Source: Streptomyces flavochromogenes (lineage in GTDB: Bacteria; Actinomycetota; Actinomycetes; Streptomycetales; Streptomycetaceae). Taken from it: 64,000 nucleotides of DNA. Where the stretch lies: contig NZ_JNZO01000011.1 of NCBI RefSeq assembly GCF_000717595.1, forward strand, positions 124,001 to 188,000, given 5' to 3'. This document shows, one piece after another, positions 1,595-28,528 of the stretch. Every line of letters begins with the position of its first letter. Within the stretch, counting starts at the first letter, position 1. The position numbers and the translations under genes are program-made. The notes beneath the pieces are model-generated. The model did no database searches, was not told where the DNA came from, and saw only the letters and a program-made list of their open reading frames with translations.

Positions 1595-2041
1595 TCAGAC
1601 CGGGCTCGGGGCCAGACTCGCCCGGCCCGGTTCCCCGAGGTACTTCTCGAAGAAGGCGTGCTCGGCCTCGCTGATCCGGCGGGGACGGCCCTTCCCGTAG
1701 TCGAACGCAGCCATGACCGTCGACGCGCTCGCGTAGACCTTCTCGCCGTCCTTGATCAGATAGTCGACGGTGACCGTCGCCGACGTGAGGCCGGAGACCC
1801 ACATCTCGATGTCGACGGGCTCGTGCCGGTGCACCAGCTGGTTCAGATAGCGGATCCGGTGCTCCACGACCACCGAACCGCCGCGGAAGAAGGCGTCGCC
1901 ACGGGTCGGCGCCAGGCGGAAGATGAAGTCGACCCGGGCCTCCTCCAGACAGCGCAGCAGGGAGACGTTGTTCACCACTCCGTAGGCGTCCATGTCCGAC
2001 CAGCGGACCGGGCAGGGGTACGTGTGCCGTGTCATCGTCAC
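1595..2041 (-). CDS. Hotdog-fold acyl thioesterase (4HBT family)
   Basis: A 148-residue 4-hydroxybenzoyl-CoA thioesterase-like protein, last gene of the minus-strand fatty-acid operon. The catalytic signature is clear in VRWSDMDAYGVVNN (Asp16 and Asp18, matching the D-x-D-x-x-G-x-V-N-N loop of YbgC/FcbC enzymes). These enzymes hydrolyse acyl-CoA or acyl-ACP thioesters. Its ATG overlaps the TGA of the oxidase gene by ATGA, so translation is probably coupled. Within the cluster it may release or proofread chains made by the adjacent KAS/ACP set; the true substrate is unknown. Confidence 0.85.
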   Translation of the reverse strand: MTMTRHTYPCPVRWSDMDAYGVVNNVSLLRCLEEARVDFIFRLAPTRGDAFFRGGSVVVEHRIRYLNQLVHRHEPVDIEMWVSGLTSATVTVDYLIKDGEKVYASASTVMAAFDYGKGRPRRISEAEHAFFEKYLGEPGRASLAPSPV

Positions 2042-3942
2042 TTCCCGGGTGTACGCGGAGGGGGCGTCGTCGCGGGGCCGGCCGCGCCGGACCGGCCGGT
2101 GGGGCCGCTCGCGCCGGTCCGGAGCAGGAACGCGGCTTCGGGGTCGTCGTACGCGAGGGGCGCGCGGAGCAGCTCCGGGGTGAGCCGGAACGCCTCGGTC
2201 AGACGTCGCGCGTGCGGCCGGAGCCGCTCGCAGAGCCCGTCCACGGCCGCGGACAGCCCTTCGACCGCTGCCCCGGTCACCAGGCCCCCGGCCAGGTACC
2301 AGCCGGCGTCCCGGCGGATCTCGACGAGTCCGTACAGCGAGGCGAGCAGTCCCAGGGCCGTCCGGTCCCGCTCGTCGGCCAGGGCGGGGACCGCCGCGGC
2401 GAGCTGCTCCAGGGCGAGGCGGACCCCGCGGGTACGGGCCATGTCGAGGGCGGTGTTCACGGCACCGTTCCAGGCGTCGAAGTACGTGCCCTCCGACGCC
2501 GCCATGTCCGCCCGCGCCTTCCGGTGCAGGGAGTCCTCACGCCGGCGCAGCAGCGCCAGCTGGACGCGGGGGTCCTCGACGTCGTCCGCCGCCTTCGCGG
2601 GCCCGGCCGCGAGAGGGCGGTCCTCCCCGGTGAGCAGCTGGCCGGCCGTCGTCGCGAGGAGCACCTGGTTGTCGCCCTCGGCGGTGACGAGCCCGTGCAG
2701 CAGCGAGCCGTACTCGGCGATCCGGTTCACCCGGAACCCGCCCTGTGCTCCGCAGCGCTCGCGGCAGATCCCGGCGACCTCGCTCATCTCCCAGGTGGAG
2801 AGCGCCTTCGTGAGGGAGATCAGATGGTTCAGCTCGTCCGACGCCGGGCCGGGGTGCGCCTCGAACTCCCGCTTCGCGTGGTTCAGGAGCAGATTCATCG
2901 CGTACACCTTCGCCAGCGCGGGGAAGAGGTCCCGCTGGTGGCTCCGGTAGTCCAGTACGGGCACGCTGCCCCGCCCGGGGCCGTTGGTCAGCCGGGTCTC
3001 CGCGTACCGCAGGGCCGTGTAGACGCTCGCCTTCCCGGCCCCGACGGCGGCGCTCGCCACGCACAGCCGGCCCGGCTGGATGCGGCTCATCGTGTGGAGG
3101 AAGCGCCGGCGCAGGTTCCCGCCGCCGGGCAGGAACGATCCGTCGGGGGAGAACCCGCCCTTCTCGCCGTACAGAAGGTTGCGGCGCGGGACGACGACCC
3201 GGTCGAACCGGGTGAGCGCGTGGTCCACTCCCTGGACGGGCTGCTCGGGAGCGGGCGTGATGTGCACCCCTTCGGCCGGCCCGGTGCCGTCGCTGATCCG
3301 CACGAGGAACGCGTGGACCCCGTGGTTCCTGCCGTCGGCCTTGAGGCGGGCCAGGACCACCGCGAGCTTCGGCAGGTCCGTGAAGCCGGTCGCGGACATG
3401 AACTTCTGCGCGCCCGCGTCCGGGGTGTCGAGGACGAACGACTCCGTCTCCGGGTCGTACACCGCCTCCGTACGCAGGGCCGCGACGTTGTTCCCGTACC
3501 CCAGCTCGGTCGCCATGTAGGGACCGAAGGAGTCGAGCCGGTCGAGCTCCTCCACGTGGTCCTCGATGTCGTCCCGGCCCGCGCCGAGGTCGAGGACCGT
3601 GCCGAGGGCGAGGTTGTGGTGCACGAGGAGCACCGAGAAGACCGCGGGGTCCAGGAGGGGCGCCCACTCCGCCAGGGCGAACAGCCGGCGCGGGCGGCGC
3701 AGCATGTCCCGGGGCCGCTCCAGATCCCGGTGCAGCACGCGCGAGCGCGTGTACGTCAGCTTCCCGGCCTCCACCGAGGTCAGACCCTCACGGGGGTCGA
3801 ACGCCGGGTCGAAGAGCACCGCGCGGATGTCGCGGTGCGTCTCCTCGTACTCCCCGTCGAAGAGGAGGCCGGACAGCGTGGTGGCGCCGACGGTCCCACC
3901 CCGGGTGCCGTGCCGGGGCTCGGTCTGCGTCGCGGTCCCCAT
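2038..3942 (-). CDS. Acyl-CoA oxidase/dehydrogenase-like flavoprotein
   Basis: A 634-residue protein matching the long acyl-CoA oxidase branch of the acyl-CoA dehydrogenase superfamily. An N-terminal helical domain is followed by a FAD-contacting segment (QKFMSATGFTDLPKLAVVLA, 179-198) and a C-terminal half with CGAQGGFRVNRIAEYG and AEGDNQVLL, where Glu422 aligns with the catalytic base. Family members dehydrogenate acyl thioesters at C2-C3. Here it may desaturate the acyl chain made by the neighbouring ACP/KAS genes, on CoA or ACP. The last ~200 residues are more variable. It lies 15 bp after the KAS II gene in a five-gene operon. Confidence 0.82.
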   Translation of the reverse strand: MGTATQTEPRHGTRGGTVGATTLSGLLFDGEYEETHRDIRAVLFDPAFDPREGLTSVEAGKLTYTRSRVLHRDLERPRDMLRRPRRLFALAEWAPLLDPAVFSVLLVHHNLALGTVLDLGAGRDDIEDHVEELDRLDSFGPYMATELGYGNNVAALRTEAVYDPETESFVLDTPDAGAQKFMSATGFTDLPKLAVVLARLKADGRNHGVHAFLVRISDGTGPAEGVHITPAPEQPVQGVDHALTRFDRVVVPRRNLLYGEKGGFSPDGSFLPGGGNLRRRFLHTMSRIQPGRLCVASAAVGAGKASVYTALRYAETRLTNGPGRGSVPVLDYRSHQRDLFPALAKVYAMNLLLNHAKREFEAHPGPASDELNHLISLTKALSTWEMSEVAGICRERCGAQGGFRVNRIAEYGSLLHGLVTAEGDNQVLLATTAGQLLTGEDRPLAAGPAKAADDVEDPRVQLALLRRREDSLHRKARADMAASEGTYFDAWNGAVNTALDMARTRGVRLALEQLAAAVPALADERDRTALGLLASLYGLVEIRRDAGWYLAGGLVTGAAVEGLSAAVDGLCERLRPHARRLTEAFRLTPELLRAPLAYDDPEAAFLLRTGASGPTGRSGAAGPATTPPPRTPGK

Positions 3943-3957: not shown

Positions 3958-5175
3958 TCAGGCCGTGAAGACGAGCGTGGCGTTCTGGCCGCCGAACCCG
4001 AACGAGTTGCTCAGGGCCGCGCGGACGGGCCCCGTGCGGGCAGTGCCGCGTACGAGATCGACCGCGATCCGGGGGTCCGGATCGACGAGCCCCGCCGTCG
4101 GCGGGATCAGCCCGTCGCGGATCGCGAGCACGCAGTACGCCGCCTCGACGGCGCCGGCCGCACCGAGCGGGTGACCGGTCACCCCCTTGGTGGAGCTCAC
4201 CGCCACCCCGTCGCCCAGCAGACGGCTGACGACCCCGGCCTCGGTCACGTCGTTGAGCGGGGTCGAGGTCCCGTGGGCGTTGACGTAGTCCACGTCGCCG
4301 GGGGTCAGGCCGGCATCGTCGAGCGCCGCCCGCATCGCCAGTTCGGCGCCGCGCCCTTCCGGGTGCGGCGACGTGACGTGGTGCGCGTCCGACGAGGCGC
4401 CGTACCCGGTCAGCCGGGCCAGCGGGCGGGCGCCGCGGGCGGCCGCGTGCTCCTCGGTCTCGAGGACCAGGACCCCGGCGCCCTCGCCCAGGACGAAACC
4501 GTCCCGTCCCGCGTCGAACGGACGGGAGGCCGTCGCCGGATCGTCCGAGCGCCGGGACAGGGCGCGCATCCGGGCGAAGGAGGAGACGTACAGCGGGGTG
4601 ATCGGTGCCTCGGCGCCGCCCGCGACGACGACGTCCACGACACCCTGCCGCAGGAGCTCCCGGCCGATGCCGAGCGCGCTCGCGCCGGCCGCGCAGGCCG
4701 TACACGGGGCGAGGCAGGGGCCGTTGGCCGAGATGTCGATCGCGACCTGGCCTGCCGCCATGTTGACCAGACCCATCGGCAGGGTCAGGGGGGACACCGA
4801 AGAGGGACCCTCCTCCAGGAGGATCCGGTGCTGGGCCTCCAGGGTGGCCGTGCCGCCCGCCCCGGAGCCGATGATCACCGCCACCCGGGAGGAGTCCGCC
4901 CACCCGCCCGGAGTCAGCCCGGCCTGCTCAAGGGCCTCGCGCGCGGCGACGACGGCGAACTGGGTGAAGCGGTCCCACTGCCAGGAGCCGTGCCCCAGCT
5001 CCCGCGGGGAGAAGTCGGGCACCTGACAGGCCATCGTGACGGGAAGGCCGTCGAGCTCCGGCAGGTGGGCGGCCGTCGGCCGGCCCGCCAGCACGGTGTC
5101 CCAGTTCGCCTTCACGCCGACTCCGGCCGGGGTGACGAGCCCCGCTCCCGTGACGAGCGCCGGGAAGCCGCTCAT
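3958..5175 (-). CDS. Beta-ketoacyl-ACP synthase II (FabF-like)
   Basis: A 405-residue decarboxylating condensing enzyme. The Cys-His-His triad is visible: Cys161 in APCTACAAGAS, His301 in VNAHGTSTPLND and His335 in KGVTGHPLGAAGAVE, plus the C-terminal SNSFGFGGQNATLVF loop. It elongates acyl-ACP with malonyl-ACP. The start at 5175 is fixed by an ATGA overlap with the upstream ACP gene. There is no chain-length-factor partner, so it is probably a homodimeric FabF-type elongase for the cluster's fatty chain rather than an aromatic type II KS. A long upstream in-frame extension is not needed and was not used. Confidence 0.92.
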   Translation of the reverse strand: MSGFPALVTGAGLVTPAGVGVKANWDTVLAGRPTAAHLPELDGLPVTMACQVPDFSPRELGHGSWQWDRFTQFAVVAAREALEQAGLTPGGWADSSRVAVIIGSGAGGTATLEAQHRILLEEGPSSVSPLTLPMGLVNMAAGQVAIDISANGPCLAPCTACAAGASALGIGRELLRQGVVDVVVAGGAEAPITPLYVSSFARMRALSRRSDDPATASRPFDAGRDGFVLGEGAGVLVLETEEHAAARGARPLARLTGYGASSDAHHVTSPHPEGRGAELAMRAALDDAGLTPGDVDYVNAHGTSTPLNDVTEAGVVSRLLGDGVAVSSTKGVTGHPLGAAGAVEAAYCVLAIRDGLIPPTAGLVDPDPRIAVDLVRGTARTGPVRAALSNSFGFGGQNATLVFTA

Positions 5176-5417
5176 CGGGCGACGGCGCCCTTGCTCTCCA
5201 GGAGGGCCACGATCTCGCCGACCGTCGAGAGCTCGGCCATCTCGTCGTCGTCGAGCTCGACACCGAGCTGCTTGGTCAGCGCGGTGGCCAGCTCGATCTG
5301 CGAGAGCGAGTCCAGGCCCAGGTCGTCGAACGTCGCGTCGGCGACAACGATGTCCCGGTCCATGCCGAAGCGGTTGGCCATGACCTCGGCCACGGAGTCG
5401 TGCATGCTGCTGCTCAT
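5172..5417 (-). CDS. Acyl carrier protein
   Basis: An 81-residue carrier protein with the phosphopantetheine attachment site LGLDSLSQIEL (Ser37) and the usual acidic helix II-III (VELDDDEMAEL). It lies between the KAS III and KAS II genes in the minus-strand operon and overlaps the latter by four bases. It is probably charged by the PPTase at 6940 and serves the KAS II, the oxidase and the hotdog thioesterase. The 117-bp gap to the preceding gene contains imperfect 12-bp repeats of GACCGGCGTCGT. Confidence 0.93.
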   Translation of the reverse strand: MSSSMHDSVAEVMANRFGMDRDIVVADATFDDLGLDSLSQIELATALTKQLGVELDDDEMAELSTVGEIVALLESKGAVAR

Positions 5418-5534: not shown

Positions 5535-6554
5535 TCAGCGAAGACTTTCGACGGACAGGTCCGGCCACTCCAGGACCGTCGAGCCCCAGGAAAGCCCGGC
5601 GCCGAAGGCCGACACGAGGACGCGCGCGCCGGGCCGCAGGGTGCCGTCGGCCGCGAGGTCGTTGAGCAGGAGAGGGATGGAGGCGGCGAGCGTGTTGCCC
5701 ACGCGGTCGATGTTCACGGCCATCCGCTCCTCGGGCAGCCCGAGTTCCTCGGCGACGGCCCGCAGGATGCGGACGTTGGCCTGATGACCGACGAACCAGT
5801 CCACGTCGCCCACACCCCAGCCGGCCTTTCCGAGGGCGGCCGTCGCCGAGCCGGTCATGCGCTCGACGGCCTGCGTGTAGAGGGGACGGCCCAGCATCCG
5901 CAGGTACCAGTCCTCGGTGGCCACCGTGTCCTGGCCGGGCCCGCCGTCGGCGGACCGCTGCCGCGAGCCGCCCGCCGGGATCGCCAGCAGGTCGGCTCGC
6001 GCCCCGTCGCTGCCGAGGTCGAAGGGGCCGAGGGCGCCCGGTTCCGCCGCATCGCCGCGGCGCAGGACCACGGCTCCCGCTCCGTCGCCGAAGATGGGGG
6101 CGGTGGCCCGGTCGGCCGGGTTCACGAGGGTGGTGAACGCCTCGGCCCCGATGAACAGCACCGTGTCGGCCGCCCCGGTGGCGATCAGGCCCGCGGCGGT
6201 GGCGAGTCCGTAGACGAAGCCGCTGCACGCGGAGGTCAGGTCGAACGCTGCCACCGTGCCGAGCCCCAGCCGGTCGGCGACCTCGGGTGCCACCGCCGGG
6301 CAGAGCCGGTCCGGCGAGGTGGTCGCCACGACGACCGCGCCGACGGCCGGGTGTCCGGCGGACTTCAGCGCCCTGGCCCCCGCCTCGATCGCCAGGTCCC
6401 GGGTCGAGAGCCCGTCGGTGACCCGGTGCCTCTGCCTGATGCCGGTCCTGCTGCTGATCCACTCGTCGGAGGTGTCGAGGGTCGCCGAGAGGTCCTCGTT
6501 GGACACCACATTCGGCGGGAGGTATCCCCCGAGGCCCATGAGCACTGCTGCCAT
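5535..6554 (-). CDS. Beta-ketoacyl-ACP synthase III (FabH-like), minus-strand operon
   Basis: A 339-residue FabH-type synthase. Catalytic residues are Cys110 in DLTSACSGFVYGL, His257 in FVGHQANVRI and Asn287 in VGNTLAASIP. FabH enzymes prime chains by condensing acyl-CoA with malonyl-ACP. A second ATG at 6560 is possible, but GGGAGG sits 8 bp before the ATG at 6554 and only about 2 bp before the other, so 6554 is preferred. First gene of the operon KAS III-ACP-KAS II-oxidase-thioesterase. Confidence 0.92.
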   Translation of the reverse strand: MAAVLMGLGGYLPPNVVSNEDLSATLDTSDEWISSRTGIRQRHRVTDGLSTRDLAIEAGARALKSAGHPAVGAVVVATTSPDRLCPAVAPEVADRLGLGTVAAFDLTSACSGFVYGLATAAGLIATGAADTVLFIGAEAFTTLVNPADRATAPIFGDGAGAVVLRRGDAAEPGALGPFDLGSDGARADLLAIPAGGSRQRSADGGPGQDTVATEDWYLRMLGRPLYTQAVERMTGSATAALGKAGWGVGDVDWFVGHQANVRILRAVAEELGLPEERMAVNIDRVGNTLAASIPLLLNDLAADGTLRPGARVLVSAFGAGLSWGSTVLEWPDLSVESLR

Positions 6555-6578
6555 CGCCATACCCTCCCGGTGAATTCG

Positions 6579-6939: not shown

Positions 6940-7692
6940 ATGACGGAGTACGACGCGCGGGAATCGGAGCAGGGCCGGAACGACGTGACGAGAGGGGCCG
7001 AGGCACTGTTTCCGGCCTCCGTGATCCTGGTCGAACGGTTCCACGACATCCCCGACGGTCGCCTCCCCGACGGCCTCTTCCCCGAGGAGCGCCGGCTCGT
7101 GGACCGGGCCGTCGACCGCCGCAGGCGGGAGTTCACCACCGCCCGGATCTGCGCGCGCGAGGCCCTGCGCCGCCTCGGCCGTCCCGCGGTGCCGGTTCCG
7201 CGCGGGCCGTCGGGCGCCCCGCTCTGGCCTGCCGGTGTCCTGGGCAGCATCACCCACTGCGAGGGCTACCGGGCGGCTGCCGTGGCAACGGCGGGGCCGG
7301 TCACGGGACTCGGCCTTGACGCTGAGCCCAACCTTCCGCTCGCCGACGCGGCGATGCTTCCGCTGATCTCCCTCCCGGCCGAGCGCCGTCATCTCGCCGA
7401 AATCACGGCGGACCCGGCCACGGCCGCGGACGGAGCGGAAGTGCACTGGGAACGCCTGCTGTTCAGTGCCAAGGAGAGCGTCTACAAGGCGTGGAACCCG
7501 ATGACCGACCGCCGGCTCGGCTTCGCCGACGCCGAGATCACCTTTTCTCCGGGCGACGGAACCTTCCGCGCCCTCCCCACCGTCCGAGGTCACGGCGCGG
7601 AGCGTGGCTTCGACGGGACCTGGCAACTTCGCGCCGGGATTCTCCTGACCGCGGTGACCGTCGTGTCCGGCGCCGGAGGAGAAAGGCCGTAG
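6940..7692 (+). CDS. 4'-phosphopantetheinyl transferase (EntD/Sfp type)
   Basis: A 250-residue PPTase that converts apo carrier proteins to the holo form using CoA. The magnesium-binding motif is GLGLDAEPN (Asp127, Glu129). The second motif is FSAKESVYKAW (Glu179, Lys183), and GSITHCEGY matches the P1-type SxxH segment of EntD-like enzymes. The start at 6940 is the first ATG before homologous sequence. It probably activates the three discrete or internal ACPs and the PCP of the cluster. It begins the plus-strand side, divergent from the KAS III operon. Confidence 0.92.
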   Translation: MTEYDARESEQGRNDVTRGAEALFPASVILVERFHDIPDGRLPDGLFPEERRLVDRAVDRRRREFTTARICAREALRRLGRPAVPVPRGPSGAPLWPAGVLGSITHCEGYRAAAVATAGPVTGLGLDAEPNLPLADAAMLPLISLPAERRHLAEITADPATAADGAEVHWERLLFSAKESVYKAWNPMTDRRLGFADAEITFSPGDGTFRALPTVRGHGAERGFDGTWQLRAGILLTAVTVVSGAGGERP

Positions 7693-9963: not shown

Positions 9964-10056
9964 ATGGATCTCACCAACGTGATCGACCTGCAGGGCACCG
10001 AGATCGTCGCCGACGGCGTCGAGCTCCCCGCCAGCGGCTCCAGCGAGGGCTGCTGA
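9964..10056 (+). CDS. Class III lanthipeptide (lipolanthine) precursor peptide, LanA
   Basis: A 30-residue precursor. The ATG at 9964 follows a near-perfect AAAGGAGG by 7 bp. The leader is MDLTNVIDLQGTEIV..., containing the I/L-x-D/E-L-Q motif (VIDLQ, 6-10) recognised by LanKC enzymes. The C-terminus is ELPASGSSEGC. Ser24-x-x-Ser27-x-x-Cys30 is the labionin/avionin ring motif, and the cysteine is the last residue, as needed for oxidative decarboxylation by LanD. Phosphorylation and elimination of Ser24 and Ser27, then addition of the decarboxylated Cys30 and a second cyclisation, would give avionin. By analogy with eight-residue lipolanthines the core may be the last 8 residues (ASGSSEGC); the cleavage point is inferred. 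Confidence 0.9.
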   Translation: MDLTNVIDLQGTEIVADGVELPASGSSEGC

Positions 10057-10067
10057 TGCCCGGGCGA

Positions 10068-10110
10068 GCGGGTCGGCTGTTGCGCGTGCGACGCGGAGCG
10101 GCCGGCCCGC
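10068..10110 (+). terminator. Hairpin between the precursor gene and the next gene (possible attenuator)
   Basis: GCGGGTCGGC (10068-10077) pairs with GCCGGCCCGC (10101-10110), ten pairs with one G-U, around a 23-nt loop. There is no U-tract, so partial termination or mRNA stabilisation is more likely than full termination. Such structures after lanA genes often keep precursor mRNA in excess of enzyme mRNA. Confidence 0.4.
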
Positions 10111-10154
10111 CGCCCGTCCCTGTTTCCGACCCGTTCCGTACTGAAGGAGGCCGC

Positions 10155-21700: not shown

Positions 21701-23154
21701 TCCAGCGCCTCGCCGCCCGTACCGAGGGCACCCCGCGCTGGTGCCTGGCGACCCAGGGCGCCCGGCCCGTGGGCGGCCGGTCCGTGACCGCGCCCGCCGG
21801 GGCGGCGGCATGGGGCCTCGGCAGGTCGGCGGCGGCCGAACACCCCGACGTACGCCACCTCCTGGTCGACCTCGACCCGGCGACGCCCGTCGAGGCGAGG
21901 GCCGCGCTGCTGTACGCCGAACTCGCCCAGGTCTGTGCCGCGCGGGACCAGCCCGAGCACCACCGGGTCGGCTACGAGGGCCACCGCCGGCACGTCGAGG
22001 CCCTCGCACGCGGCGCCGCCCCCGCGCGGCCGGAGCCGGATCCGCAGCCGGGTTCCGTGCTGCGCCCCGACGCCACGTACCTGGTCACCGGCGGCCTCGG
22101 CGGTCTCGGTCTGGCGGCAGCCCGGACGCTGAGCGCCTCGGGTGCCCGGCACCTCGTCCTGCTGGGCCGTACGCCGCCGGGCGACGCGGCCCTGCGGGAC
22201 ATCGAGGCCCTGCGTACCGAGGGCTGTGACGTCCGCGTGGTCACGGCGGACGTCGCCGACGCGGAGCAGCTCGCCCGGGCCCTGGCGCCGCCGCCCGACG
22301 GTCCGGAGCAGCCGCGGCTCGCGGGCGTGCTGCACCTGGCCGGAGTGCTCGACGACGGGGTGCTGCTGCTCCAGTCGCCGGAGCGGCTCGGGCGGGTCAT
22401 GGCCCCCAAGGCGCGGGGCGCGTGGAACCTGCACGAGCTCACCCGCGAGCTGCCGCTGGACTTCTTCGTCCTGTTCTCCTCGGTGTCGGGACTCCTCGGC
22501 ACCCCGGGGCAGACGACGTACGCGGCGGCCAACGCCTTCCTCGACGGCCTCGCCTCGCACCGGCGCGGACTCGGTCTGCCTGCCCTGTCCGTGCAGTGGG
22601 GCTCGTGGTCGGAGACGGGCATGAGCGCGCGGGCCGGTGTCAACGCGAAGCTGGTGTCCCGGGGCGAGGGGGTCATCCCGCTCGCGGACGGACTCGCCGC
22701 GCTGCTCGGTCTGTTGACCGCGCGGCCCGACGACGGCGCCCTCGCGGTGCTGCCCGTGGACTGGACGCGGTTCGCCGACCGCGACGCACCGGCGCTGCGC
22801 GGTCTCCTGGCGGCGATGCCGGGTGCCGGGCGGGGTCCCTCGGAGAGCGGCGGGTTCCGGGCGGCGTTCGACGCGGCGTCCTCCGGGGTGCGCGGGGAAC
22901 TGCTGCTGGCCCGGGTCAGGGAGCAGGTGGCCCGGGTGCTCGGTGAGACGGACCCCGACGCGGGGGAGACGGACGACCTGGACGTCTTCGCCCGCGGCCT
23001 GGACTCGCTGACGGCGATCGAGCTCAGACGGAACCTGCAGCGCGCCCTGGGGTGCCGTCTGGGGCAGTCGGCCGTGTACGACCACCCGACGGTCGCGGCG
23101 CTCGCCGGGCATCTGGGGGAACTCATCGAGGACGACGGGAGCGGTACGCGATGA
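15754..23154 (+). CDS. Hybrid NRPS-PKS megasynthase, A-PCP-KS-AT-DH-KR-ACP
   Basis: A 2,466-residue one-module hybrid. Order: adenylation domain (about 25-525; FTSGSTGAPKGALMTH, NHYGATEFQD, YRTGDL), PCP (Ser571 in DLGGTSLLL), KS (Cys809 in VQSACSTSL; EAHGTGT; GHLDEAAG), AT (Ser1261 in GHSHGEYAAA), dehydratase (His1563 in DHRVFGSVVMPG; second motif HPVLLEACF with Glu for the usual Asp), KR (TGGLGGLG; Tyr2256 in GQTTYAAANAF; an LDD motif of the B type) and ACP (Ser2418 in GLDSLTAIEL). There is no ER and no thioesterase domain. A tentative GrsA-style alignment gives substrate residues D-F-H-F-V-T-H-D; Asp235 suggests an amino acid starter. The enzyme probably works iteratively; release may be by the GNAT or the discrete thioesterase. 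Confidence 0.93.
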   Translation: MPSHSSALPPATVDALVRRHADGPAAATVAMEHGDRRVTYRELDAMTLRVADALGRAGVGRGDFVGVRLARSPRAVAAMLGVLRAGAAYVPIDVADPVERVGHVIRTAGVALVITDDAAAAGGPSVPALRFDEDCRPLAGAAPPAPATAPDATAVPATAAAPDLTAEDIAYALFTSGSTGAPKGALMTHGALVNLLEWHDRARPGSCGSRTAQVCSLSFDFSFHEIFSTLAFGGTLVFADDEVRRNPFALLAHLGERRVERLFLPVPLLDQLAQAAAGEDEALPALREVVTTGQQLRTTPHIRELFRRTGALLHNHYGATEFQDATAHTLDGDPDTWPAVAPVGRPIDGVRVRILDEGLAEVPAGEEGELCVLGAGVSPGYIGRPDLTARRFLDDPAGGGRLYRTGDLARIGQDGVIELRGRIDTQIKVAGVRIEAGEIEALLLEHPGVRDAAVLAHEIDGHTRLVAHVVPAPALPGDGAPRLLDAFLAPKLPRAMMPEAYVLLPGMPLTASGKTDRARLTPPEVFERLAGEEVVAPRSTTEQVLAEVWRSVLRLADISVDDRFFDLGGTSLLLVRVRAELARRLGRDVPMVDLLQYPTIRAHAARLDGAAAAAGTTGDAHLPSVEQETTEDIAVIGMAGRFPGAPDVETFWHNLRHGVESAGPLPGGGAGQRDPGIAGHPDFVAAGAVLPDIDLFDAEFFQLSRKEAELLDPQQRLFLECAWEAMESAGHPPGGASADRVGVFAGAGMSTYLLNNLAPHFGYGQGKALTESDLEQFQLKLGNDGNYLATRVSYALNLRGPSVGVQSACSTSLVAVHLACQSLIDGDSDMALAGGVHVVVPQDAGYVHEEGMIMSADGHTRTFDAEATGTLFGNGCGIVVLKRLARARADGDRVIAVIKGSAVNNDGSEKISFTAPSVTGQADVVRTALSRAGVKPSEVGYVEAHGTGTALGDPVELASLTSVFGAGAGDGAVAVGSVKTNIGHLDEAAGVAGLIKAALCVRDGVLVPSLHYRAPNSEIDFDRSPFRVSTGTTVWETDGAPRTAGVTSLGVGGTNAHVVVQQAPESIPASESVPLGGDAAATDTDAAEARLLVLSARGERALAQLSDRYAAHLGAAPRDLSLADVAFTAATGRRHFPYRRAVVARSPADAAARLCARPGGITVPPGRLALLFPGQGPQYAGMGRELYDREPVFREALDRCDALLRDRLEHPLLSVVFAADGEPSPLGETRYAQPALFAFEYALARLWHSWGVRPDVLLGHSHGEYAAACLAGVLSLEDALTLVHARGRLMQALPESGAMVAVALDEASVAGLLGPHSAVAVVNGPRSTVMSGRVDEIDAACAVLAERGVRHRRLDISIASHSPLMRPMLAEFEAVARSVRYREPRVEIISTVTGAPIGREMADWRYWVEQITRPVRFHDAATALRSAGARVLLEISPKPTLLQLVEDLFDEGDAALVPSMRADGGHEHLLGALGALYEAGVDPDWDAVLGGRDRRRVALPTYPWQRERHWIDASERTGEPGRTGEPVGAGADFLGARLGLAGGGGVRFTSTVGVGTVSWLRDHRVFGSVVMPGVAFQELACAAAREAFGPVPARVRDFHIHRALVFPDETTLRRMQVVLAPEGDGTYTFEVHSTLLPADSGSGPEQPEEWTLHASGQLESGAAEASFVPLPAAGALDALRTRFADHPLPPEEIYQRERERDIDLGPLFRVTDRLWHRGSEALSHIALGPALRPETDRHRVHPVLLEACFLALTVTYPEKLGRRTYVPLGVDRIRIEGHAAGDEAWCHARIRPTDQDDPETLRADIDLWAADGTLLLALDGVLLKRAARETMIPAAREPWRDWLYETRWTPTRLPAPAPSAGRWLVVSDDPLGAALGDFARLHGVACEVLTGEAAGSTAPEEYDLVVLCGPSGPHTGRGSGTGRVSGPDRAAGPDAGPDRAAGPDAGPDRAARADAGPDRAAGPGARDAAADAEAESALMLRLVQRLAARTEGTPRWCLATQGARPVGGRSVTAPAGAAAWGLGRSAAAEHPDVRHLLVDLDPATPVEARAALLYAELAQVCAARDQPEHHRVGYEGHRRHVEALARGAAPARPEPDPQPGSVLRPDATYLVTGGLGGLGLAAARTLSASGARHLVLLGRTPPGDAALRDIEALRTEGCDVRVVTADVADAEQLARALAPPPDGPEQPRLAGVLHLAGVLDDGVLLLQSPERLGRVMAPKARGAWNLHELTRELPLDFFVLFSSVSGLLGTPGQTTYAAANAFLDGLASHRRGLGLPALSVQWGSWSETGMSARAGVNAKLVSRGEGVIPLADGLAALLGLLTARPDDGALAVLPVDWTRFADRDAPALRGLLAAMPGAGRGPSESGGFRAAFDAASSGVRGELLLARVREQVARVLGETDPDAGETDDLDVFARGLDSLTAIELRRNLQRALGCRLGQSAVYDHPTVAALAGHLGELIEDDGSGTR
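21531..21645 (+). repeat. In-frame 30-bp tandem repeat in the megasynthase
   Basis: A 30-bp unit encoding PDRAAGPDAG recurs about 3.5 times between the dehydratase and ketoreductase domains. Two copies (21541-21570, 21571-21600) are identical and the third (21601-21630) differs at two bases. Copies are a multiple of three, so changes in copy number keep the frame. The product is a flexible acidic linker. Confidence 0.85.
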
Positions 23155-23918
23155 CGAAGCTGGTGTGTCTGCACCACGCGGGGGGCAGCCCCTCGGTCTT
23201 CCGCCCGTGGGAGTTGTACGCGCCGCCGGGGATCGAGGTCGTCGCGATCGCCCTTCCGGAGGTGCCGGCGGCGGCCGCGTCGACGGGCCCGGCGGTGGCT
23301 CCGCGCCGGCAGATCGGAGCGCTGGTCCCGGTCCTCGCGGATCTGGTCCGCGAAGAGGTCGGCGACGAGGATTTCGTGCTCTTCGGGAAGAGCATGGGCG
23401 GACTTCTCGCCTATCTCGTCACCCGGTATTTCGGGGAATGCGGCGGGCCGCTGCCGAAGGCACTTGCCGTGGCCAGTTTCGGGGCGCCGCACCGTCCTTG
23501 GCAGAATTTCACCGAAGGATATGAGGACGACCGGAGGCTCGTGCGATATCTGCACGAGATCGGGAGCATCCCGGAGTGGGCCGTCGAGCATCCCGAATGG
23601 GTGGCGCCCTACCTCGGGCGGCTCCGCGAGGACGCCCGTATGTGCGCCGAGTTCCGTTTCGAGCCGCAGGGCGCCCCGTTGTCCGTGCCGGTCCGGGTCT
23701 TCGGCGGAGACCGGGATCCGCTGGTCCCGGTCGAGGCCGTACGCCGGTGGTCGGAGCTCGGCGACGACGTCGAGGTGACGATCCTGCCCGGCGGTCATTT
23801 CCTGGTCTCCGAGGACATCGGCCTGCTCAGGCAGTCGGTTTTCGGCCTGGTCTCCGCAATTCGGCCATCGGCTTGTGGTGTCGAGCCCGCCATATGGCGT
23901 ACCGTGGAGGCGAGTTGA
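23151..23918 (+). CDS. Type II thioesterase
   Basis: A 255-residue alpha/beta hydrolase of the external (type II) thioesterase family found with PKS and NRPS genes. It opens LVCLHHAGGSPSVFRPW, has the nucleophile Ser81 in LFGKSMGGLLAY (lysine replaces the usual histidine of GHSMG), an acid in FGGDRDPLVPV and a histidine in LPGGHFLVSED. It should clear wrongly loaded or stalled acyl groups from carrier domains, or might release the product since the megasynthase lacks its own thioesterase. The ATG at 23151 overlaps the megasynthase stop (ATGA). GC content falls in its second half. Confidence 0.88.
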   Translation: MTKLVCLHHAGGSPSVFRPWELYAPPGIEVVAIALPEVPAAAASTGPAVAPRRQIGALVPVLADLVREEVGDEDFVLFGKSMGGLLAYLVTRYFGECGGPLPKALAVASFGAPHRPWQNFTEGYEDDRRLVRYLHEIGSIPEWAVEHPEWVAPYLGRLREDARMCAEFRFEPQGAPLSVPVRVFGGDRDPLVPVEAVRRWSELGDDVEVTILPGGHFLVSEDIGLLRQSVFGLVSAIRPSACGVEPAIWRTVEAS

Positions 23919-23963: not shown

Positions 23964-24311
23964 ATGAAGCGAATTTTCGGCCTCGCGGCAATCGTCGCAG
24001 GCGGAGTGCTCGCCCTCTTCTTCCCGGATCTCGAATTCGGCTGGTTCAAGGGCCGCCCGCTGGGAATCGCCCTTGTCGTCATCGGCGGAATCGAACTCCT
24101 GGAGAGCACGCGACGCCGCAAGCCGAAGGGTTTCGTCGAGGAGCTGCGCGACGACCTCGGCCTCGGTTCGCGGAACCGCGACAGGGACGAGGACCGGCGC
24201 GGGAGCCGCGGCAGGGACCGTGAGCGCGACCAGGACCGGGAGATGGTGCGGGAGTTCGACCAGGAGGTGGAGCGTGAGGCGCGGAAGTACCGCGACTACC
24301 CGGACCTCTAG
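23964..24311 (+). CDS. Small two-helix membrane protein with highly charged tail
   Basis: A 115-residue protein of unknown function inside the cluster operon. The ATG at 23964 follows AGGAGG. Two hydrophobic segments (IFGLAAIVAGGVLALFF, 4-20, and PLGIALVVIGGIELL, 32-46) form a hairpin, followed by a 65-residue tail very rich in Arg, Asp and Glu (for example RNRDRDEDRRGSRGRDRERD). It could be an accessory subunit for export or self-protection, or a membrane anchor for the biosynthetic enzymes. No named family was recognised. Confidence 0.75.
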   Translation: MKRIFGLAAIVAGGVLALFFPDLEFGWFKGRPLGIALVVIGGIELLESTRRRKPKGFVEELRDDLGLGSRNRDRDEDRRGSRGRDRERDQDREMVREFDQEVEREARKYRDYPDL

Positions 24312-24352: not shown

Positions 24353-25081
24353 ATGCCGGAGTTCGGCACCATCGGATTCGACAAGAGCGAAGAGGCCCGG
24401 TCGAAGCGGGCGAAACTGTTCCTCGTGGCCACGGGCACGCTGTCCACGGCGCACCTGCCCTTCTGGCTCAACTGGCTTTCGTCCAACCGTCCCCACTACG
24501 AGGTGACGATTGGGCTGACCGACTCGGCCAGGAAGTTCGTGAGCGCCCCGGCGCTCGCCGCGATCACCGGTTCCCCGGTGGTCGGCAACACCTGGGACAC
24601 GGCGGACGGCCTGCGACCGGTCCACACGCGCATCGCCGCCGACTACGACGGCCTCCTGGTGTTCCCGGCCTCCGTCGCCTTCACCTCGGCCCTGGCCGCT
24701 GCCTCCGGCACCTCGCCGTTCCACCTGGCCGCGCTCGGCACGGCGGCGCCGGTCGTGCTCGCCCCCACGTTTCCGCCCGGGGTGGCCGACAATCCGCTGG
24801 TCGCCGACGTGTTCCGCAGACTGGGCTCCGTACCGAACTACCACGTCGTCGAGCCCCGTAAGGGGACGAGCCGTTCGACCGGCGCCGAGACGGACGTGAC
24901 CGCGCCCCTGTGGGACGTGATCGCGGCGTTCGAGGCGGCACGCCGGGCGCCCGCGCCGGGCGGGGCCCCCGCGCCGGCATCGGACCCGGCCTCCGCGCCG
25001 GGCGAGGCCCAGGCACCGGACGACGCCCCCGCGCCGGCGGCGGACACCACCGTGACCGCACCGGTACCCGTATCCGCCTGA
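24353..25081 (+). CDS. LanD-type flavoprotein cysteine decarboxylase (HFCD family)
   Basis: A 242-residue homo-oligomeric flavin-containing Cys decarboxylase-like protein. It has the N-terminal flavin-binding pattern KLFLVATGTLSTAHLPFWL, the catalytic histidine (His91, in RPVHTRIAADYD) and the block LLVFPASVAF, which differs from the PASANT motif of EpiD. The APTFPPGVADNPLV segment replaces the usual substrate clamp. It should oxidatively decarboxylate the C-terminal Cys30 of the precursor to an enethiol, the step that makes avionin. The last ~50 residues are Ala/Pro-rich and probably disordered. ATG 24353 has GGGGAG upstream; a GTG at 24326 is an alternative start. It lies just before LanKC. 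Confidence 0.85.
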   Translation: MPEFGTIGFDKSEEARSKRAKLFLVATGTLSTAHLPFWLNWLSSNRPHYEVTIGLTDSARKFVSAPALAAITGSPVVGNTWDTADGLRPVHTRIAADYDGLLVFPASVAFTSALAAASGTSPFHLAALGTAAPVVLAPTFPPGVADNPLVADVFRRLGSVPNYHVVEPRKGTSRSTGAETDVTAPLWDVIAAFEAARRAPAPGGAPAPASDPASAPGEAQAPDDAPAPAADTTVTAPVPVSA

Positions 25082-25148: not shown

Positions 25149-27815
25149 ATGGACTACTTCTATTACACGTTCGCCGACCCCGACGCGTACGACGACATCG
25201 GCCGCTGGAAGGCCGACCCGCGGGACCCGCGGTTCGACCGGATACGCAGCGGCCTGACCGCCGTCCCCCACACCGAGGGCTGGCACTACGCCCAGCACGG
25301 GATCTGGACGGTCTGCCGCCCCGGCCCCGATCCCGTGCGCGGCCAGGGCTGGAAGATCCATGTGGCGGTGACGCCGGAGACCTTCGCCCCCCTCGTCGAC
25401 GTCGTCTCCGCCTTCTGTTACGAGCGCGGTGTCCCCTTCAAGTTCCTCGCGCGCCACGAGTACGCGTGGCTGATCAACGCCAAGTACGCGCCGCGCCCGG
25501 TCAGCGGGAAGGGCGTCGTCCTCTACCCGGCCGACGAGGAGCAGTCCGTCGCCCTGGCCGCCGAGCTGACGGACCTTCTGGAGCCCTGGCAGGGCCCGCG
25601 GGTCCTGTCCGACCTGCGCCTCGACGAGGGCGTGGTCCACGTCCGGTACGGGGCCTACACCCGCCGCTACTGCCGCAACGCCGACGGCAAGGTCACCTTC
25701 GCGCTCGAAGACCCGGAAGGCCGCCTCGTCCCGGACCGCAGGGCCGTGCCCTTCCGCGCCCCGTCGTTCGTGAGCGTGCCCGAGGCCTTCACCGCCCCGG
25801 CGTCCGCGCCGGACGGCCCCGTGCCCCCGTACCGGATCGACAAGACGCTGCACTTCTCCAACAGCGGTGGCGTGTACCTCGCGACGCACAAGGAGACCGG
25901 CGGCCAGGTCGTCCTGAAGGAAGCGCGCCCGATGGCGGGCTACGACCTGATCGGCGGCGACGCCGTCGAGCGGGCCCGCCAGGAGTACGCCGCCCTGCGC
26001 AGGTTCGCCGACCTGCCGGCCGTGCCCGCCGCCCACGAGCAGTTCACCTGGCAGGGTCACCTGTTCACGGTGATGGAGTACGTCCGCGGCACCACGCTCC
26101 TGGAGTGGTGCGCCGCCAAGCAGCCCTATCTGCTGCGCCCCGACCCGATGACGCCGCCCACCGCGGCGGACATCCAGGAGTACCGCGAGCAGCTCGACAG
26201 CATCCTTCCCCAGGTCCGCGCCTTCCTGTCGGCGCTGTGGGAGCGGGGCCACGTCTTCGGGGACGTGCATCCGGGCAACGTCATCGTGACCCCGGACCTG
26301 GAGGTCAGGTTCATCGACCTGGAGGCGTGCATCGAGGAGGACGCCCCGCGTCCCTTCCCCGGCGCACCCGGGTTCAACGACTACACCCGCACCGGGCGGG
26401 CGGCGGACGAGTACGCCCTCGGCATGCTGGAGCTGTCCTGCTACCTGCCGCTCACCCATCTCGTACGGATGGACGCGGCGAAGCTCCCCCTCCTGGTGGC
26501 CACCAGCGTCGAGCGCTACGGCCTGCCGGCGGAGTGGGCCGAGCGGATCCTGCGCCTCTGCGCCCCCGTCGCCACCGCGGCCGCACCCGTCCCCGCCGCG
26601 GTCTCGCCCGCACCCGTGACCACCGCGGCCCCGTCCGCCCCCGCCGAGGCCCGGACCGCCCTCCGTGCGGCGTCCAGCCATCTCGACGACGCGCTCGGCT
26701 TCGAGGAGTGGGCCGCGCAGATCGTCGCCGGTCTCGCGGACACCATGACCCCGGACCGCACGGACCGGCTCTTCCGCAACGACTTCTCGGGCTTCACCCT
26801 CTCCCCGGTGTGCCTCGCCACGGGCGCCTCCGGCGTGCTGTGGTCGCTCCTCGGGACCCGGGGCGTCGACGCGCCGGAGCTGGTGGAGCGGATCGTCGAC
26901 TGGATCGCCGTCCGCGGCCGGGAGTCGTCCGCCGTCCGGCTCGAATCCGGCCTGTACGACAGTGAACTCGGCGCCGGATACGCCCTCTGGCGGCACGGCC
27001 GCCCCGAGCACGCCCGTGGCCTCGTGGACGCCGCCCTGGCGAAGGACCACCACAGTGCCGGGCTCAGCCTGTTCAGCGGCCTCGGAGGCGTCTTCCTGGC
27101 CACCGCCGAGATGGCGGCCGCGTCCGATCCGTTCGTCGCGGCGGCCACGGCCGAGAAGCTCGGCGGGGAACTCGCCGACCGCGCCCGGCGCTTCCTCGCC
27201 CGGCTCAAGGCGAGCGAGACGCCCGACGTCGCCCACTTCGGGCTCCTGCACGGTGTCGCGGGCATCGGGCTCGCCGTCCACCGCTACGGACTGCTCGTGG
27301 ACGACGCCGCGGCGGTGGACCTGGCACGCGAACTGCTGGAGTTCGAGCTGACCGGCTACGTGCGCTGCGCGGACGGCTCCCTCCAGTTCAACGAGGCCGA
27401 ACGCCGGAGCCTCGGCTACGTCGAGGTCGGCTCGCTCGGCACGGCGCTGGTCCTCTCGGAGTTCGCCCGGCACGAGGGCTGGGCCCCCGCCGACGCGGGC
27501 ATCCCCGACCTGGTGCGGGCCAACGGCCCCGAGTTGATGGTCCAGAGCGGGCTCTTCCGCGGCCGGTCCGGGTTCATCGCGGGCCTGGCCTCGCTCGCCC
27601 GCGACGGACACGAGCAGCCGGCCCGGTCGTTCGTCGAGCGCCACATGAACCAGCTCGGCCTGCACGAGATCCGCCCGGCGGAAGGCCGGCTGCACTATCC
27701 CGGCACGCGCAACTACAAGCTCTCCGGCGATCTGCGGACCGGCAGCGCCGGGGTGCTCACGAGCATCGCCTTCGCGGAGGGGCGCCGCGACGCGTGGCTC
27801 CCCGGAGTCCGGTAG
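25149..27815 (+). CDS. Class III lanthipeptide synthetase LanKC
   Basis: An 888-residue three-domain enzyme. The N-terminal lyase region is about 1-220. The Ser/Thr kinase domain (about 225-470) has Lys257 in VVLKEARP, the catalytic loop HVFGDVHPGN (Asp372, Asn377) and the metal-binding IDLEAC (Asp390). After an Ala/Pro linker (474-503) comes a LanC-like cyclase domain (about 510-888) with GASGVLWSLLG and FGLLHGVAGIGLA, but without the Cys-Cys-His zinc ligands of LanC, which defines class III. It phosphorylates and eliminates Ser residues of the precursor and forms the labionin-type ring. It should recognise the VIDLQ leader motif. Confidence 0.93.
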   Translation: MDYFYYTFADPDAYDDIGRWKADPRDPRFDRIRSGLTAVPHTEGWHYAQHGIWTVCRPGPDPVRGQGWKIHVAVTPETFAPLVDVVSAFCYERGVPFKFLARHEYAWLINAKYAPRPVSGKGVVLYPADEEQSVALAAELTDLLEPWQGPRVLSDLRLDEGVVHVRYGAYTRRYCRNADGKVTFALEDPEGRLVPDRRAVPFRAPSFVSVPEAFTAPASAPDGPVPPYRIDKTLHFSNSGGVYLATHKETGGQVVLKEARPMAGYDLIGGDAVERARQEYAALRRFADLPAVPAAHEQFTWQGHLFTVMEYVRGTTLLEWCAAKQPYLLRPDPMTPPTAADIQEYREQLDSILPQVRAFLSALWERGHVFGDVHPGNVIVTPDLEVRFIDLEACIEEDAPRPFPGAPGFNDYTRTGRAADEYALGMLELSCYLPLTHLVRMDAAKLPLLVATSVERYGLPAEWAERILRLCAPVATAAAPVPAAVSPAPVTTAAPSAPAEARTALRAASSHLDDALGFEEWAAQIVAGLADTMTPDRTDRLFRNDFSGFTLSPVCLATGASGVLWSLLGTRGVDAPELVERIVDWIAVRGRESSAVRLESGLYDSELGAGYALWRHGRPEHARGLVDAALAKDHHSAGLSLFSGLGGVFLATAEMAAASDPFVAAATAEKLGGELADRARRFLARLKASETPDVAHFGLLHGVAGIGLAVHRYGLLVDDAAAVDLARELLEFELTGYVRCADGSLQFNEAERRSLGYVEVGSLGTALVLSEFARHEGWAPADAGIPDLVRANGPELMVQSGLFRGRSGFIAGLASLARDGHEQPARSFVERHMNQLGLHEIRPAEGRLHYPGTRNYKLSGDLRTGSAGVLTSIAFAEGRRDAWLPGVR

Positions 27816-28528
27816 TGGGCGACGTCCTGGGCCAGGTCCTGCCCCTGGCCCTGCTCGACACCCTCGGCGTGTCCACGATCGCCATCCCCGTCTGGTTCCT
27901 GCTCATGCCGTCGGGGCTGCGGATCGGCCGCGTCTTCGGCTACCTCGCCCTCGTCTCACTGGGCTACCTCGTGCTCGGCCTGGTGCTCCTGAGCACCCTC
28001 GCGGCGGTACGCGAGGACCTGAAGAGCGCGCTGGAATCGCCGGCCGGCGACACGGCGATGGGCGTGGCGGGCGGCGCCCTGCTCCTCCTCGCCGCCTGGT
28101 ACGGACTGCTGCGCCGGGAGAGGCCCGGCTCCGGCCGGCTCGTCCGCTGGCGGGAACAGGCGGTGGGCCGGTCCTCGACGGCGAAGGGCCTGATCACCGT
28201 CTCCACCCTGGCCGTCGTCCTCGAAGCGGCCACGATGTTCCCCTACTTGGCGGCCATCGGAATCCTGGGCGATTCGGCGCTGCCCTGGCCGTCCCAGGCG
28301 GCCGTCCTGGCGGTCTACTGCCTGGTGATGGTCGCCCCGGCCGTGCTCGTGGCCCTGGCCCGGCTGGTCTCGAAGAGCGCGGTCCACCGGCCGCTGCGCA
28401 GGATCGACATCTGGCTCAGGGACAACGCCCGGGAGAACACGGCCTGGCTCATCGCCCTCGCGGGATTCATCCTGCTGTCGAACAGCACCGCCTACGACCG
28501 GATCATGGCCCTGCTCTCCTCCGACTGA
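27815..28528 (+). CDS. GAP/SfLAP-family integral membrane protein (possible exporter)
   Basis: A 237-residue protein with about six predicted membrane segments (for example IAIPVWFLLMPSG, FGYLALVSLGYLVLGLVLL, AMGVAGGALLLLAAWYGLL, ITVSTLAVVLEAATMFPYL, AVLAVYCLVMVAPAVLVAL). It resembles the Gap family, whose mycobacterial members take part in glycopeptidolipid export. GTG at 27815 overlaps the LanKC stop by one base (TAGTG). As the last gene of the operon and the only transporter-like protein in the cluster, it may export the lipopeptide or give immunity. Confidence 0.72.
   Translation: MGDVLGQVLPLALLDTLGVSTIAIPVWFLLMPSGLRIGRVFGYLALVSLGYLVLGLVLLSTLAAVREDLKSALESPAGDTAMGVAGGALLLLAAWYGLLRRERPGSGRLVRWREQAVGRSSTAKGLITVSTLAVVLEAATMFPYLAAIGILGDSALPWPSQAAVLAVYCLVMVAPAVLVALARLVSKSAVHRPLRRIDIWLRDNARENTAWLIALAGFILLSNSTAYDRIMALLSSD

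What the first reader, a model, noticed from the sequence alone, without database searches (positions are those of the whole stretch)
1595..28528. A Streptomyces lipolanthine cluster: class III lanthipeptide plus guanidino-polyketide
One continuous region encodes a LanA precursor with an avionin ring motif, LanKC, LanD, an amidinotransferase, an A-PCP-KS-AT-DH-KR-ACP megasynthase, discrete fatty-acid enzymes, two GNATs and a PPTase. Established knowledge: microvionin and goadvionin are avionin peptides carrying a PKS/FAS-derived acyl group, joined in goadvionin by a GNAT. Inference: this cluster makes a related guanidino-acylated avionin peptide with its own core sequence. Whether this exact cluster has been described cannot be judged here.
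Basis: partly seen in the sequence, partly recalled or inferred. Interest (0 to 1): 0.95.

Follow-up and report, generated by a model that had tools for sequence, protein, structure and literature searches.

The report
Streptomyces guanidino-acyl lanthipeptide gene cluster
A stretch of a Streptomyces genome holds the genes to make a small ring-shaped ribosomal peptide and, by all signs, to cap it with a guanidine-bearing polyketide chain; it looks like a rare, little-studied branch of the lipolanthine peptides.

Summary
Window 6940-28528 is a co-oriented block of 17 genes: PPTase, regulator, GNAT1, LanA, KASIII, ACP, GNAT2, SDR, two discrete acyltransferases, amidinotransferase, A-PCP-KS-AT-DH-KR-ACP megasynthase, thioesterase, small protein, LanD, LanKC, SfLAP. 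A divergent accessory fatty-acid operon lies at 1595-6560. LanA is 9964-10056, predicted core ASGSSEGC, in the register of nocaviogua. In nine LanAs (window included) only S2, S5 and C8 of the core never change, exactly the avionin positions. The gene order recurs in seven relatives, one with a PKS deletion; LanKC forms its own clade.

Best reading: a new variant of the lipolanthines. An AGAT-like amidinotransferase makes a guanidino acid, the A domain loads it, the PKS extends it, and a GNAT pair puts it on Ala1. Details: both discrete ATs lack the FabD malonyl arginine, and AT2's model matches VinK, an inter-ACP shuttle, slightly best; GNAT1 is a GNAT fold with a degenerate P-loop; the DH has Glu for its usual Asp in eight of eight; no methyltransferase was found; one relative has a different LanKC/LanD. 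Chain length, guanidine and acyl-peptide bond are inferred. The mic/noc/gdv clusters could not be fetched for comparison.

The parts
1595..2041 (-). 4HBT thioesterase, accessory operon
   Evidence: Pfam PF13279 66.7 bits; found in the Streptomyces aureus locus, not in RH52
2038..3942 (-). acyl-CoA oxidase/dehydrogenase-like, accessory operon
   Evidence: PF22924 73.1 bits; S. aureus 95%, RH52 75%
3958..5175 (-). KASII (FabF type), accessory operon
   Evidence: NF005589 479 bits over cut-off 387; start
5172..5417 (-). acyl carrier protein (GLDSLS), accessory operon
   Evidence: NF002148 E 3.3e-15, below its cut-off
5535..6560 (-). KASIII, accessory operon
   Evidence: PF08541 116.2 bits (longer ORF); start
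6940..7692 (+). 4'-phosphopantetheinyl transferase
   Evidence: PF17837 97.1 bits (longer ORF), Npt-like below cut-off; in 3 of 9 loci
7940..9094 (+). DNA-binding regulator, ParB-like/HTH by eye
   Evidence: weak HTH and ParB matches only; matched in 7 of 9 loci, two only in part
9258..9878 (+). GNAT1, GNAT fold with degenerate P-loop
   Evidence: no NCBIfam match, not scanned with Pfam here, no precomputed Pfam in its homologs; AF2 model pLDDT 83 matches SpeG-type GNATs; P-loop glycine not conserved in 30 aligned sequences
9964..10056 (+). LanA, MDLTNVIDLQGTEIVADGVELP | ASGSSEGC (cleavage site inferred)
10056..11171 (+). KASIII-type ketosynthase, Cys-His-Asn kept; true start may be about 10155
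   Evidence: NF006829 267.4 bits over cut-off 249; alignment
11175..11408 (+). discrete acyl carrier protein, serine in YGLES
   Evidence: no family match; ACP by size, place and GLES in 8 of 8 orthologs printed
11417..12043 (+). GNAT2, with GxG P-loop
   Evidence: PF13302 32.3 bits over cut-off 25.4; alignment
12040..12798 (+). FabG-like SDR ketoreductase
   Evidence: PF13561 105.5 bits
12795..13706 (+). AT1, MCAT-like discrete acyltransferase without the malonyl Arg
13696..14592 (+). AT2, VinK/MCAT-like discrete acyltransferase without the malonyl Arg
   Evidence: model and Foldseek
14606..15754 (+). AGAT-type amidinotransferase
   Evidence: 1jdx 8e-83, HC and FDAAD regions aligned
15754..23154 (+). 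A-PCP-KS-AT-DH-KR-ACP hybrid megasynthase, 2466 aa; DH has Glu1746 where Asp is usual
   Evidence: motifs
23151..23918 (+). type II thioesterase
   Evidence: PF00975 82.7 bits (longer ORF)
23964..24311 (+). small protein with one predicted hydrophobic segment, unknown
   Evidence: no family; segment; matched in 7 of 9 loci
24353..25081 (+). LanD flavin-dependent cysteine decarboxylase
25149..27815 (+). LanKC class III lanthipeptide synthetase
   Evidence: NF038151 691.1 bits; own clade 100/100
27815..28528 (+). SfLAP (Sap/GAP family) membrane protein, likely export
   Evidence: PF11139 89.4 bits (from ORF start 27794); no NCBIfam match
28625..28712 (-). tRNA-Ser(cga), right border

Best explanation
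The block makes an N-acylated avionin peptide of the lipolanthine kind. (1) LanKC dehydrates Ser2 and Ser5 of the core ASGSSEGC, LanD oxidatively decarboxylates Cys8, and the enethiol closes an avionin over S2-S5-C8 (inferred from family and core invariance). (2) The leader is cut after ELP, freeing Ala1; no protease gene was recognised among the genes scanned. (3) The AGAT-type amidinotransferase moves the amidino group of arginine to an amino acid; the A domain loads that guanidino acid on the PCP; the KS-AT-DH-KR-ACP module extends and reduces it (inferred; same logic and nearly the same domain set as CyrA/CyrB of cylindrospermopsin, PMC2885083). Whether dehydration follows is open, since the DH has Glu for the usual Asp. 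(4) The arginine-less, VinK-like AT1/AT2 carry the chain between the megasynthase and the discrete ACP, where KASIII and SDR add and reduce a further unit (inferred). (5) GNAT2, probably with the P-loop-poor GNAT1 as partner, joins acyl to Ala1; SfLAP helps export. In this strain the divergent KASIII-ACP-KASII-ACOX operon may add or feed a fatty segment.
For: Seven further loci keep the order regulator-GNAT1-LanA-KASIII-ACP-GNAT2-SDR-AT1-AT2-AmT-PKS-TE-sm-LanD-LanKC-SfLAP, with contig-end cuts in two and one PKS deletion. Nine LanAs, window included: core invariants are only S24, S27, C30, and third codon positions vary most. The mass rule for this register gives nocaviogua A 918.4502 against a reported 918.4507. 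LanKC 691 bits; LanD. Protein-database lists for GNAT1, AT1 and GNAT2 hold 30, 29 and 24 proteins, and nine named strains stand in all three. AmT; A-pocket residues kept in the 9 aligned sequences apart from V/I at one position, ISL-10 included. AT2 model: top five Foldseek hits are VinK. Microvionin and goadvionin are named among GNAT-lipidated or N-terminally lipidated lanthipeptides in PMC13060382.
Against: No product is known. A-domain specificity was not predicted by any tool. LanD scores 63.5 bits against the CypD model's cut-off of 215. GNAT1 has no family match. AT1 and AT2 similarity to MCATs is weak, and malonyl transferase structures follow VinK closely. The DH carries Glu instead of the usual catalytic Asp in 8 of 8 (motif recalled), and the PKS AT has IASH rather than the malonyl-type HAFH (recalled), so reduction and extender are unsure. 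Nothing fixes the number of elongations; an SfLAP-type protein and the accessory operon hint at a longer lipid chain than one PKS module gives. Two GNATs for one bond are unexplained.
Confidence: 0.8

Rival explanations
1. Two neighbouring pathways: a class III lanthipeptide and an independent guanidino-polyketide that share a locus but not a product.
Against: LanA lies between GNAT1 and KASIII, inside the acyl block, in 8 of the 9 loci that have this block (window included) and next to GNAT1 in the ninth, G279; GNATs are named as lipidating enzymes for this class (PMC13060382); acyl genes and GNATs co-occur.
Confidence: 0.07
2. The acyl group is a short guanidino-ketide rather than a lipid: one PKS extension plus at most one KASIII/SDR extension.
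For: One PKS module without ER; ISL-10 has only A plus one carrier (626 aa) and so can hardly build a long chain with its cluster alone; no DH or ER family outside the PKS among the genes scanned.
Against: PKS iteration cannot be excluded; SfLAP family is known from mycobacterial lipid export (recalled); accessory FAS-type genes in this strain and other KASIII-ACP pairs in two relatives.
Confidence: 0.35
3. The acyl chain is a long guanidino fatty acid as in microvionin/nocaviogua, made by iteration of the PKS and by the FAS-type enzymes.
For: Nocaviogua carries a C13 acyl chain (PMC10435860); the accessory operon resembles the FabH4/FabF3/HxcO set (PMC9136287).
Against: The accessory operon is found beside the cluster only in the two nearest relatives; no ER and no methyltransferase among the genes scanned.
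Confidence: 0.4
4. The amidinotransferase-like protein does not supply a guanidino starter; the chain starts from another acid.
For: Solved relatives of AGAT have other names and substrates (SxtG, HsvA, inosamine-phosphate amidinotransferase); A substrate unproven.
Against: 81-97% identity across 8 loci, each time just before the A-domain gene; catalytic motif regions aligned with AGAT.
Confidence: 0.15

Closest known systems
Lipolanthines: nocaviogua A/B, nocavionin, microvionin
   Same: Eight-residue S2-S5-C8 avionin register in nocaviogua, class III synthetase and decarboxylase in the group, N-terminal guanidino acyl (PMC10435860, three of four parts of the text read; PMC10373908, passages).
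   Different: Nocaviogua itself had no antibacterial effect up to 128 ug/mL, so activity cannot be assumed.
Goadvionin / GdvG
   Same: PKS-peptide hybrid joined by an acyltransferase (title seen in reference lists; N-terminal lipidation named in PMC13060382, passages).
   Different: Goadvionin has a trimethylammonio acyl (recalled); this cluster has an amidinotransferase. The S. bicolor locus with another LanKC, SET protein and desaturase looks nearer to that type, by inference.
CyrA/CyrB of cylindrospermopsin
   Same: Amidinotransferase followed by an A-loaded KS-AT module with DH and KR for guanidinoacetate (PMC2885083, passages).
   Different: CyrB has an MT domain; the product is an alkaloid, not a peptide conjugate; no sequence comparison was made.
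VinK of vicenistatin
   Same: AT2 model's best structural matches; VinK moves an acyl between a standalone ACP and a PKS ACP (PMC6164871, PMC11284099, passages).
   Different: 16-18% identity only; substrate unknown; here A and PCP are fused to the PKS.
CDA/cystargamide fab set (FabH4, FabF3, HxcO)
   Same: KASIII, KASII and acyl-CoA-oxidase-type enzyme together (PMC9136287, passage).
   Different: Extra 4HBT thioesterase, beside a RiPP cluster rather than an NRPS; sequences not compared.

Membership tests
lipolanthine | class III LanKC | tested here: met
   NF038151 691.1 bits over cut-off 575
lipolanthine | LanD flavin cysteine decarboxylase | tested here: met
   PF02441 over cut-off, CypD structure 5e-16; CypD-specific model below cut-off
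lipolanthine | precursor with class III leader and C-terminal SxxSxxC | tested here: met
   leader motif by eye (DLQ/ELQ; LxLQ per PMC7268733 passages)
lipolanthine | PKS/FAS genes and a GNAT in the cluster | tested here: met
lipolanthine | avionin formed and N-terminus acylated in the product | not testable with these tools
   no product data
lipolanthine | sequence kinship to MicKC, NocKC or GdvKC | not tested
   those records were not reached; tree only against LanKCs of fetched genomes
microvionin/nocavionin type (bis-methylated guanidino acyl) | methyltransferase for the guanidine in the cluster | tested here: not met
   no methyltransferase family among the called genes scanned; one encoded elsewhere is not excluded
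guanidino-primed PKS (CyrA/CyrB logic) | AGAT-type amidinotransferase next to an A-PCP-KS module | tested here: met
guanidino-primed PKS (CyrA/CyrB logic) | A domain activates a guanidino acid | not testable with these tools
   pocket residues are conserved but no substrate call was made
malonyl-CoA:ACP transacylase (for AT1, AT2) | arginine that binds the malonyl carboxylate (E. coli FabD Arg117, recalled) | tested here: not met
   the aligned residue is Met in AT1 and an invariant Asn in AT2; weak alignments

The most novel reading that the evidence does not exclude
A distinct branch of acylated avionin peptides in which a type I guanidino-PKS hands its chain, through a pair of VinK-like discrete acyltransferases, to a type II ACP/KASIII/SDR set and a GNAT pair (one active, one pseudo-enzyme). 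The cap is a short cationic guanidino-ketide instead of a lipid. The system recombines by modules in nature: ISL-10 has deleted KS-AT-DH-KR, G279 carries the same acyl block and LanA with a different LanKC/LanD, and accessory FAS genes differ by lineage.
Probability: 0.3. Interest if true: 0.7.

Novelty: new variant of a known kind. Interest (0 to 1): 0.55.

Why it matters
A 2023 paper counted 12 lipolanthines in three groups before its own two, some active against resistant Gram-positive bacteria and its own two inactive (PMC10435860). Short homologue lists in a 5.8-billion-protein search (30, 29 and 24 proteins; word-based, so limited in reach) mark a small, coherent branch with seven distinct cores among nine LanAs, a natural PKS deletion and a natural LanKC swap. 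It would give direct tests of how a PKS chain is passed to a ribosomal peptide and how much of the acyl chain the GNATs accept.

Tried and rejected
Rejected or set aside: (a) the long ORFs opposite the PKS (2464 aa on the minus strand) are mechanical; they failed the codon-position GC filter. (b) LanD as a bait at class level mostly finds CoaBC-like background: 383 of 394 genomes matched at E 1e-8. Of the 18 further LanD-like places fetched (besides the G707 C32 locus), none shows this acyl block in the stretch fetched and only G682 a weak LanKC match (28%), with no matching precursor. (c) LanA could not be used as a protein-search query (too short). (d) Plasmid collection: no GNAT1 match. (e) NCBI's name 'ACP S-malonyltransferase' for AT1 homologs was doubted on the missing arginine. 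(f) My first idea that GNAT1 wholly lacks the P-loop was softened: the window copy keeps a G-x-A, but the family does not. (g) The idea that the accessory operon is core was dropped. (i) The microvionin and goadvionin papers did not come up among the papers listed; PMC11321927 and PMC7540663 are not held.
Full report
Place. The window is G000:C11:124001-188000 of an 8.88 Mb genome. Its nearest named relative among the loci fetched is Streptomyces aureus NRRL B-2808 (a Streptomyces, not the staphylococcus), whose proteins from regulator to LanKC are 87-100% identical. The right border is tRNA-Ser(cga) 28625-28712, followed by ordinary genes (deaminase, HerA-like helicase).

Observation. Gene calling by codon-position GC and profile scans give the parts listed. 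LanA was found by a six-frame search for a C-terminal [ST]xxSx2-5C pattern; of 16 hits it was, by eye, the only one with a plausible leader. It has AAAGGAGG seven bases before its ATG. Start codons of KASIII, the PPTase and LanD are uncertain and are set by orthologs or by domain starts.

Related loci. A search with GNAT1 found 30 proteins. Used as an alignment on one genome for each of 84,980 species, 52 stretches matched a pattern and 8 encoded a relative: seven at 56-95% identity and one, in S. bicolor, at 29%. Nine loci (the eight plus G279) were compared with 26 query proteins. Seven (S. aureus, the MAG RH52, Nonomuraea candida, S. albidochromogenes, S. jumonjinensis, S. natalensis, ISL-10) keep the 16-gene order regulator to SfLAP. 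Losses: S. aureus ends inside LanKC at its contig end; S. albidochromogenes begins inside the regulator; ISL-10 lacks KS-AT-DH-KR.

Precursors. Nine LanAs (window and eight loci; S. bicolor left out because its precursors are of another type) give seven distinct cores: ASGSSEGC (two), ASGASEGC, ASASSETC, VSTNSDGC (two), ASTSSDGC, ASTASDGC, ASTGSSTC. In the core only S2, S5 and C8 never change; pairwise differences are 0.118, 0.087 and 0.227 at codon positions 1, 2, 3. Nocaviogua's residues Ala-Avi-Val-Ser-Avi-Asp/Asn-Gly-Avi (PMC10435860, parts 1-3 of 4 read) lie in the same register. My mass rule for this register reproduces nocaviogua A, 918.4502 against the reported 918.4507. PMC10880069 (passages) notes no report of dehydrobutyrine in avionin, which fits invariant Ser.

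Peptide enzymes. LanKC is class III by profile. In a tree of 18 LanKCs (the truncated S. aureus copy dropped) eight rows, the window, six relatives and G707, form a clade at 100/100 on a branch of 1.08. Outside it lie the S. bicolor and G279 copies, five LanKCs of the kind that scores highest with the class III model, and three divergent rows, for which the tool warned of long branches. No named Mic/Noc/Gdv reference was available, so this shows a distinct branch, not its distance from them. LanD keeps one His (H91 of the window copy; the role of such a His is recalled) in all 8 aligned sequences; 6 of the 8 have PAS where the canonical motif reads PASANT (recalled).

Acyl enzymes. The amidinotransferase aligns over query residues 11-373 with human AGAT, including the HC and FDAAD regions. 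The megasynthase keeps KS, AT, KR and carrier motifs in eight of nine sequences; the ninth, ISL-10, is 626 aa, A joined to one carrier whose GLDSL resembles the last ACP. Against a simple reading, the DH keeps its His but has Glu1746 where Asp is usual in 8 of 8, and the AT motif reads IASH or VACH rather than HAFH (motifs recalled), so dehydration and extender are unsure. The A-pocket positions (register recalled) read D-F-H-F-V-T-H-D-A-K and are unchanged in the nine except V to I at one position in Nonomuraea and G279. CyrA/CyrB is described as an amidinotransferase plus an A-loaded module with KS, AT, MT, KR and DH for guanidinoacetate (PMC2885083 and PMC3252866, passages), the closest logic I found for the start of this chain.

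Discrete acyltransferases. AT1 and AT2 match malonyl transferases only weakly. Alignment puts Met in AT1 (the same in 9 of 9) and Asn in AT2 (invariant in 8) where FabD has its malonyl-binding Arg (role recalled), while the PKS AT keeps an Arg in RGRLM in 8 of 8. The AT2 model (pLDDT 78.4, eight sequences) has five VinK chains as best Foldseek hits, E 5.2e-15 to 2.9e-14, with malonyl transferases close behind from 4.7e-14, so the preference is slight. VinK passes an acyl between a standalone ACP and a PKS ACP (PMC6164871, PMC11284099, passages). I infer that AT1/AT2 link the megasynthase to the discrete ACP.

GNATs. GNAT1 has no NCBIfam match, yet its model (pLDDT 83.1) is a GNAT fold, best matches SpeG-type. 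Its P-loop glycine is not conserved in the alignment of 30; GNAT2 keeps GxG in 9 of 9. GNAT1 and GNAT2 are not alike by BLASTP (E 2.9), but each resembles the S. bicolor GNAT (28% and 34%). A split into an active and a helper GNAT is inferred; PMC13060382 (passages) describes a tandem GNAT with one degenerate domain in another lipidated lanthipeptide.

Accessory genes. The minus-strand operon KASIII-ACP-KASII-ACOX-4HBT is present 5 of 5 in S. aureus and 4 of 5 in RH52 (4HBT not found), at 75-99% identity. In the other seven loci the best matches are to other genes: the cluster's own KASIII (37-38%), PKS ketosynthases (27-30%), and the S. bicolor ketosynthase (44%). S. albidochromogenes and S. 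jumonjinensis have another KASIII (54% to the window's accessory one) and an ACP after SfLAP, then what look by eye like two ABC-transporter genes, and in S. jumonjinensis an AMP-ligase-like ORF (not profile-scanned). The set FabH4/FabF3/HxcO of CDA and cystargamide (PMC9136287, passage) is the nearest known company of such genes.

Modularity. G279 has the acyl block (50-81%, PKS pieces and TE lowest) and LanA, but LanD and LanKC at 38% and 35%, plus a degraded-looking second LanA frame. G707 has the reverse: LanD, LanKC, SfLAP, TE and sm at 44-63%, with a weak trace of the PKS end (165 residues, E 0.001), an ordinary SDR match (26%), and no LanA or other acyl gene found in 32 kb.

Novelty. 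Searches of the paper library for lipolanthine (42 papers, 20 listed), goadvionin (13), microvionin (17, 16 listed), lipoavitide (3) and combined terms showed no description of this cluster in the titles, abstracts or passages I saw. Subscription papers and supplements, where such clusters may be listed, were not seen, so 'undescribed' is not proven.

Noticed in passing
L043/L044 (S. bicolor), L043 15718-16191 and neighbours: A different lipolanthine-like locus: three LanAs ending ASASSWNC, ASVTSWEC, ASASSWNC, LanKC 37% to ours, two AMP-binding proteins, KS, GNAT, PKS, a SET-domain protein and a fatty acid desaturase.
   Followed up: partly
G279:C5 (L045, L046): Same acyl block and LanA as the window but with another type of LanKC/LanD: a natural module swap; also a degraded-looking second LanA frame before KASIII.
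   Followed up: partly
G707:C32 (L067, L068): LanD-LanKC-SfLAP-TE-sm of this family without LanA or acyl block in 32 kb; only a short weak match to the PKS end.
   Followed up: partly
L007/L041 (Streptomyces sp. ISL-10): Megasynthase reduced to A plus one carrier (626 aa), a natural deletion of KS-AT-DH-KR.
   Followed up: yes
window 15754-23154, residue 1746: DH domain with Glu in place of the usual catalytic Asp, the same in 8 of 8 sequences that keep the domain.
   Followed up: partly
L076 about 3359 (+) and G682 (L087-L089, joined and reversed, about 28379): Short peptides ending in Cys in loci with LanD-like genes (...FTVKTYKDGC...ASVITIEIDC), possibly other aminovinyl-cysteine RiPPs.
   Followed up: no
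window 54001-56000: GC is 0.650 there, against 0.683-0.770 in the other 2-kb steps of the window.
   Followed up: no
window 58827-58914 and 59215-59313: tRNA-Ser(gga) and the small SRP RNA beside dnaX-like and purD-like genes: ordinary housekeeping.
   Followed up: no
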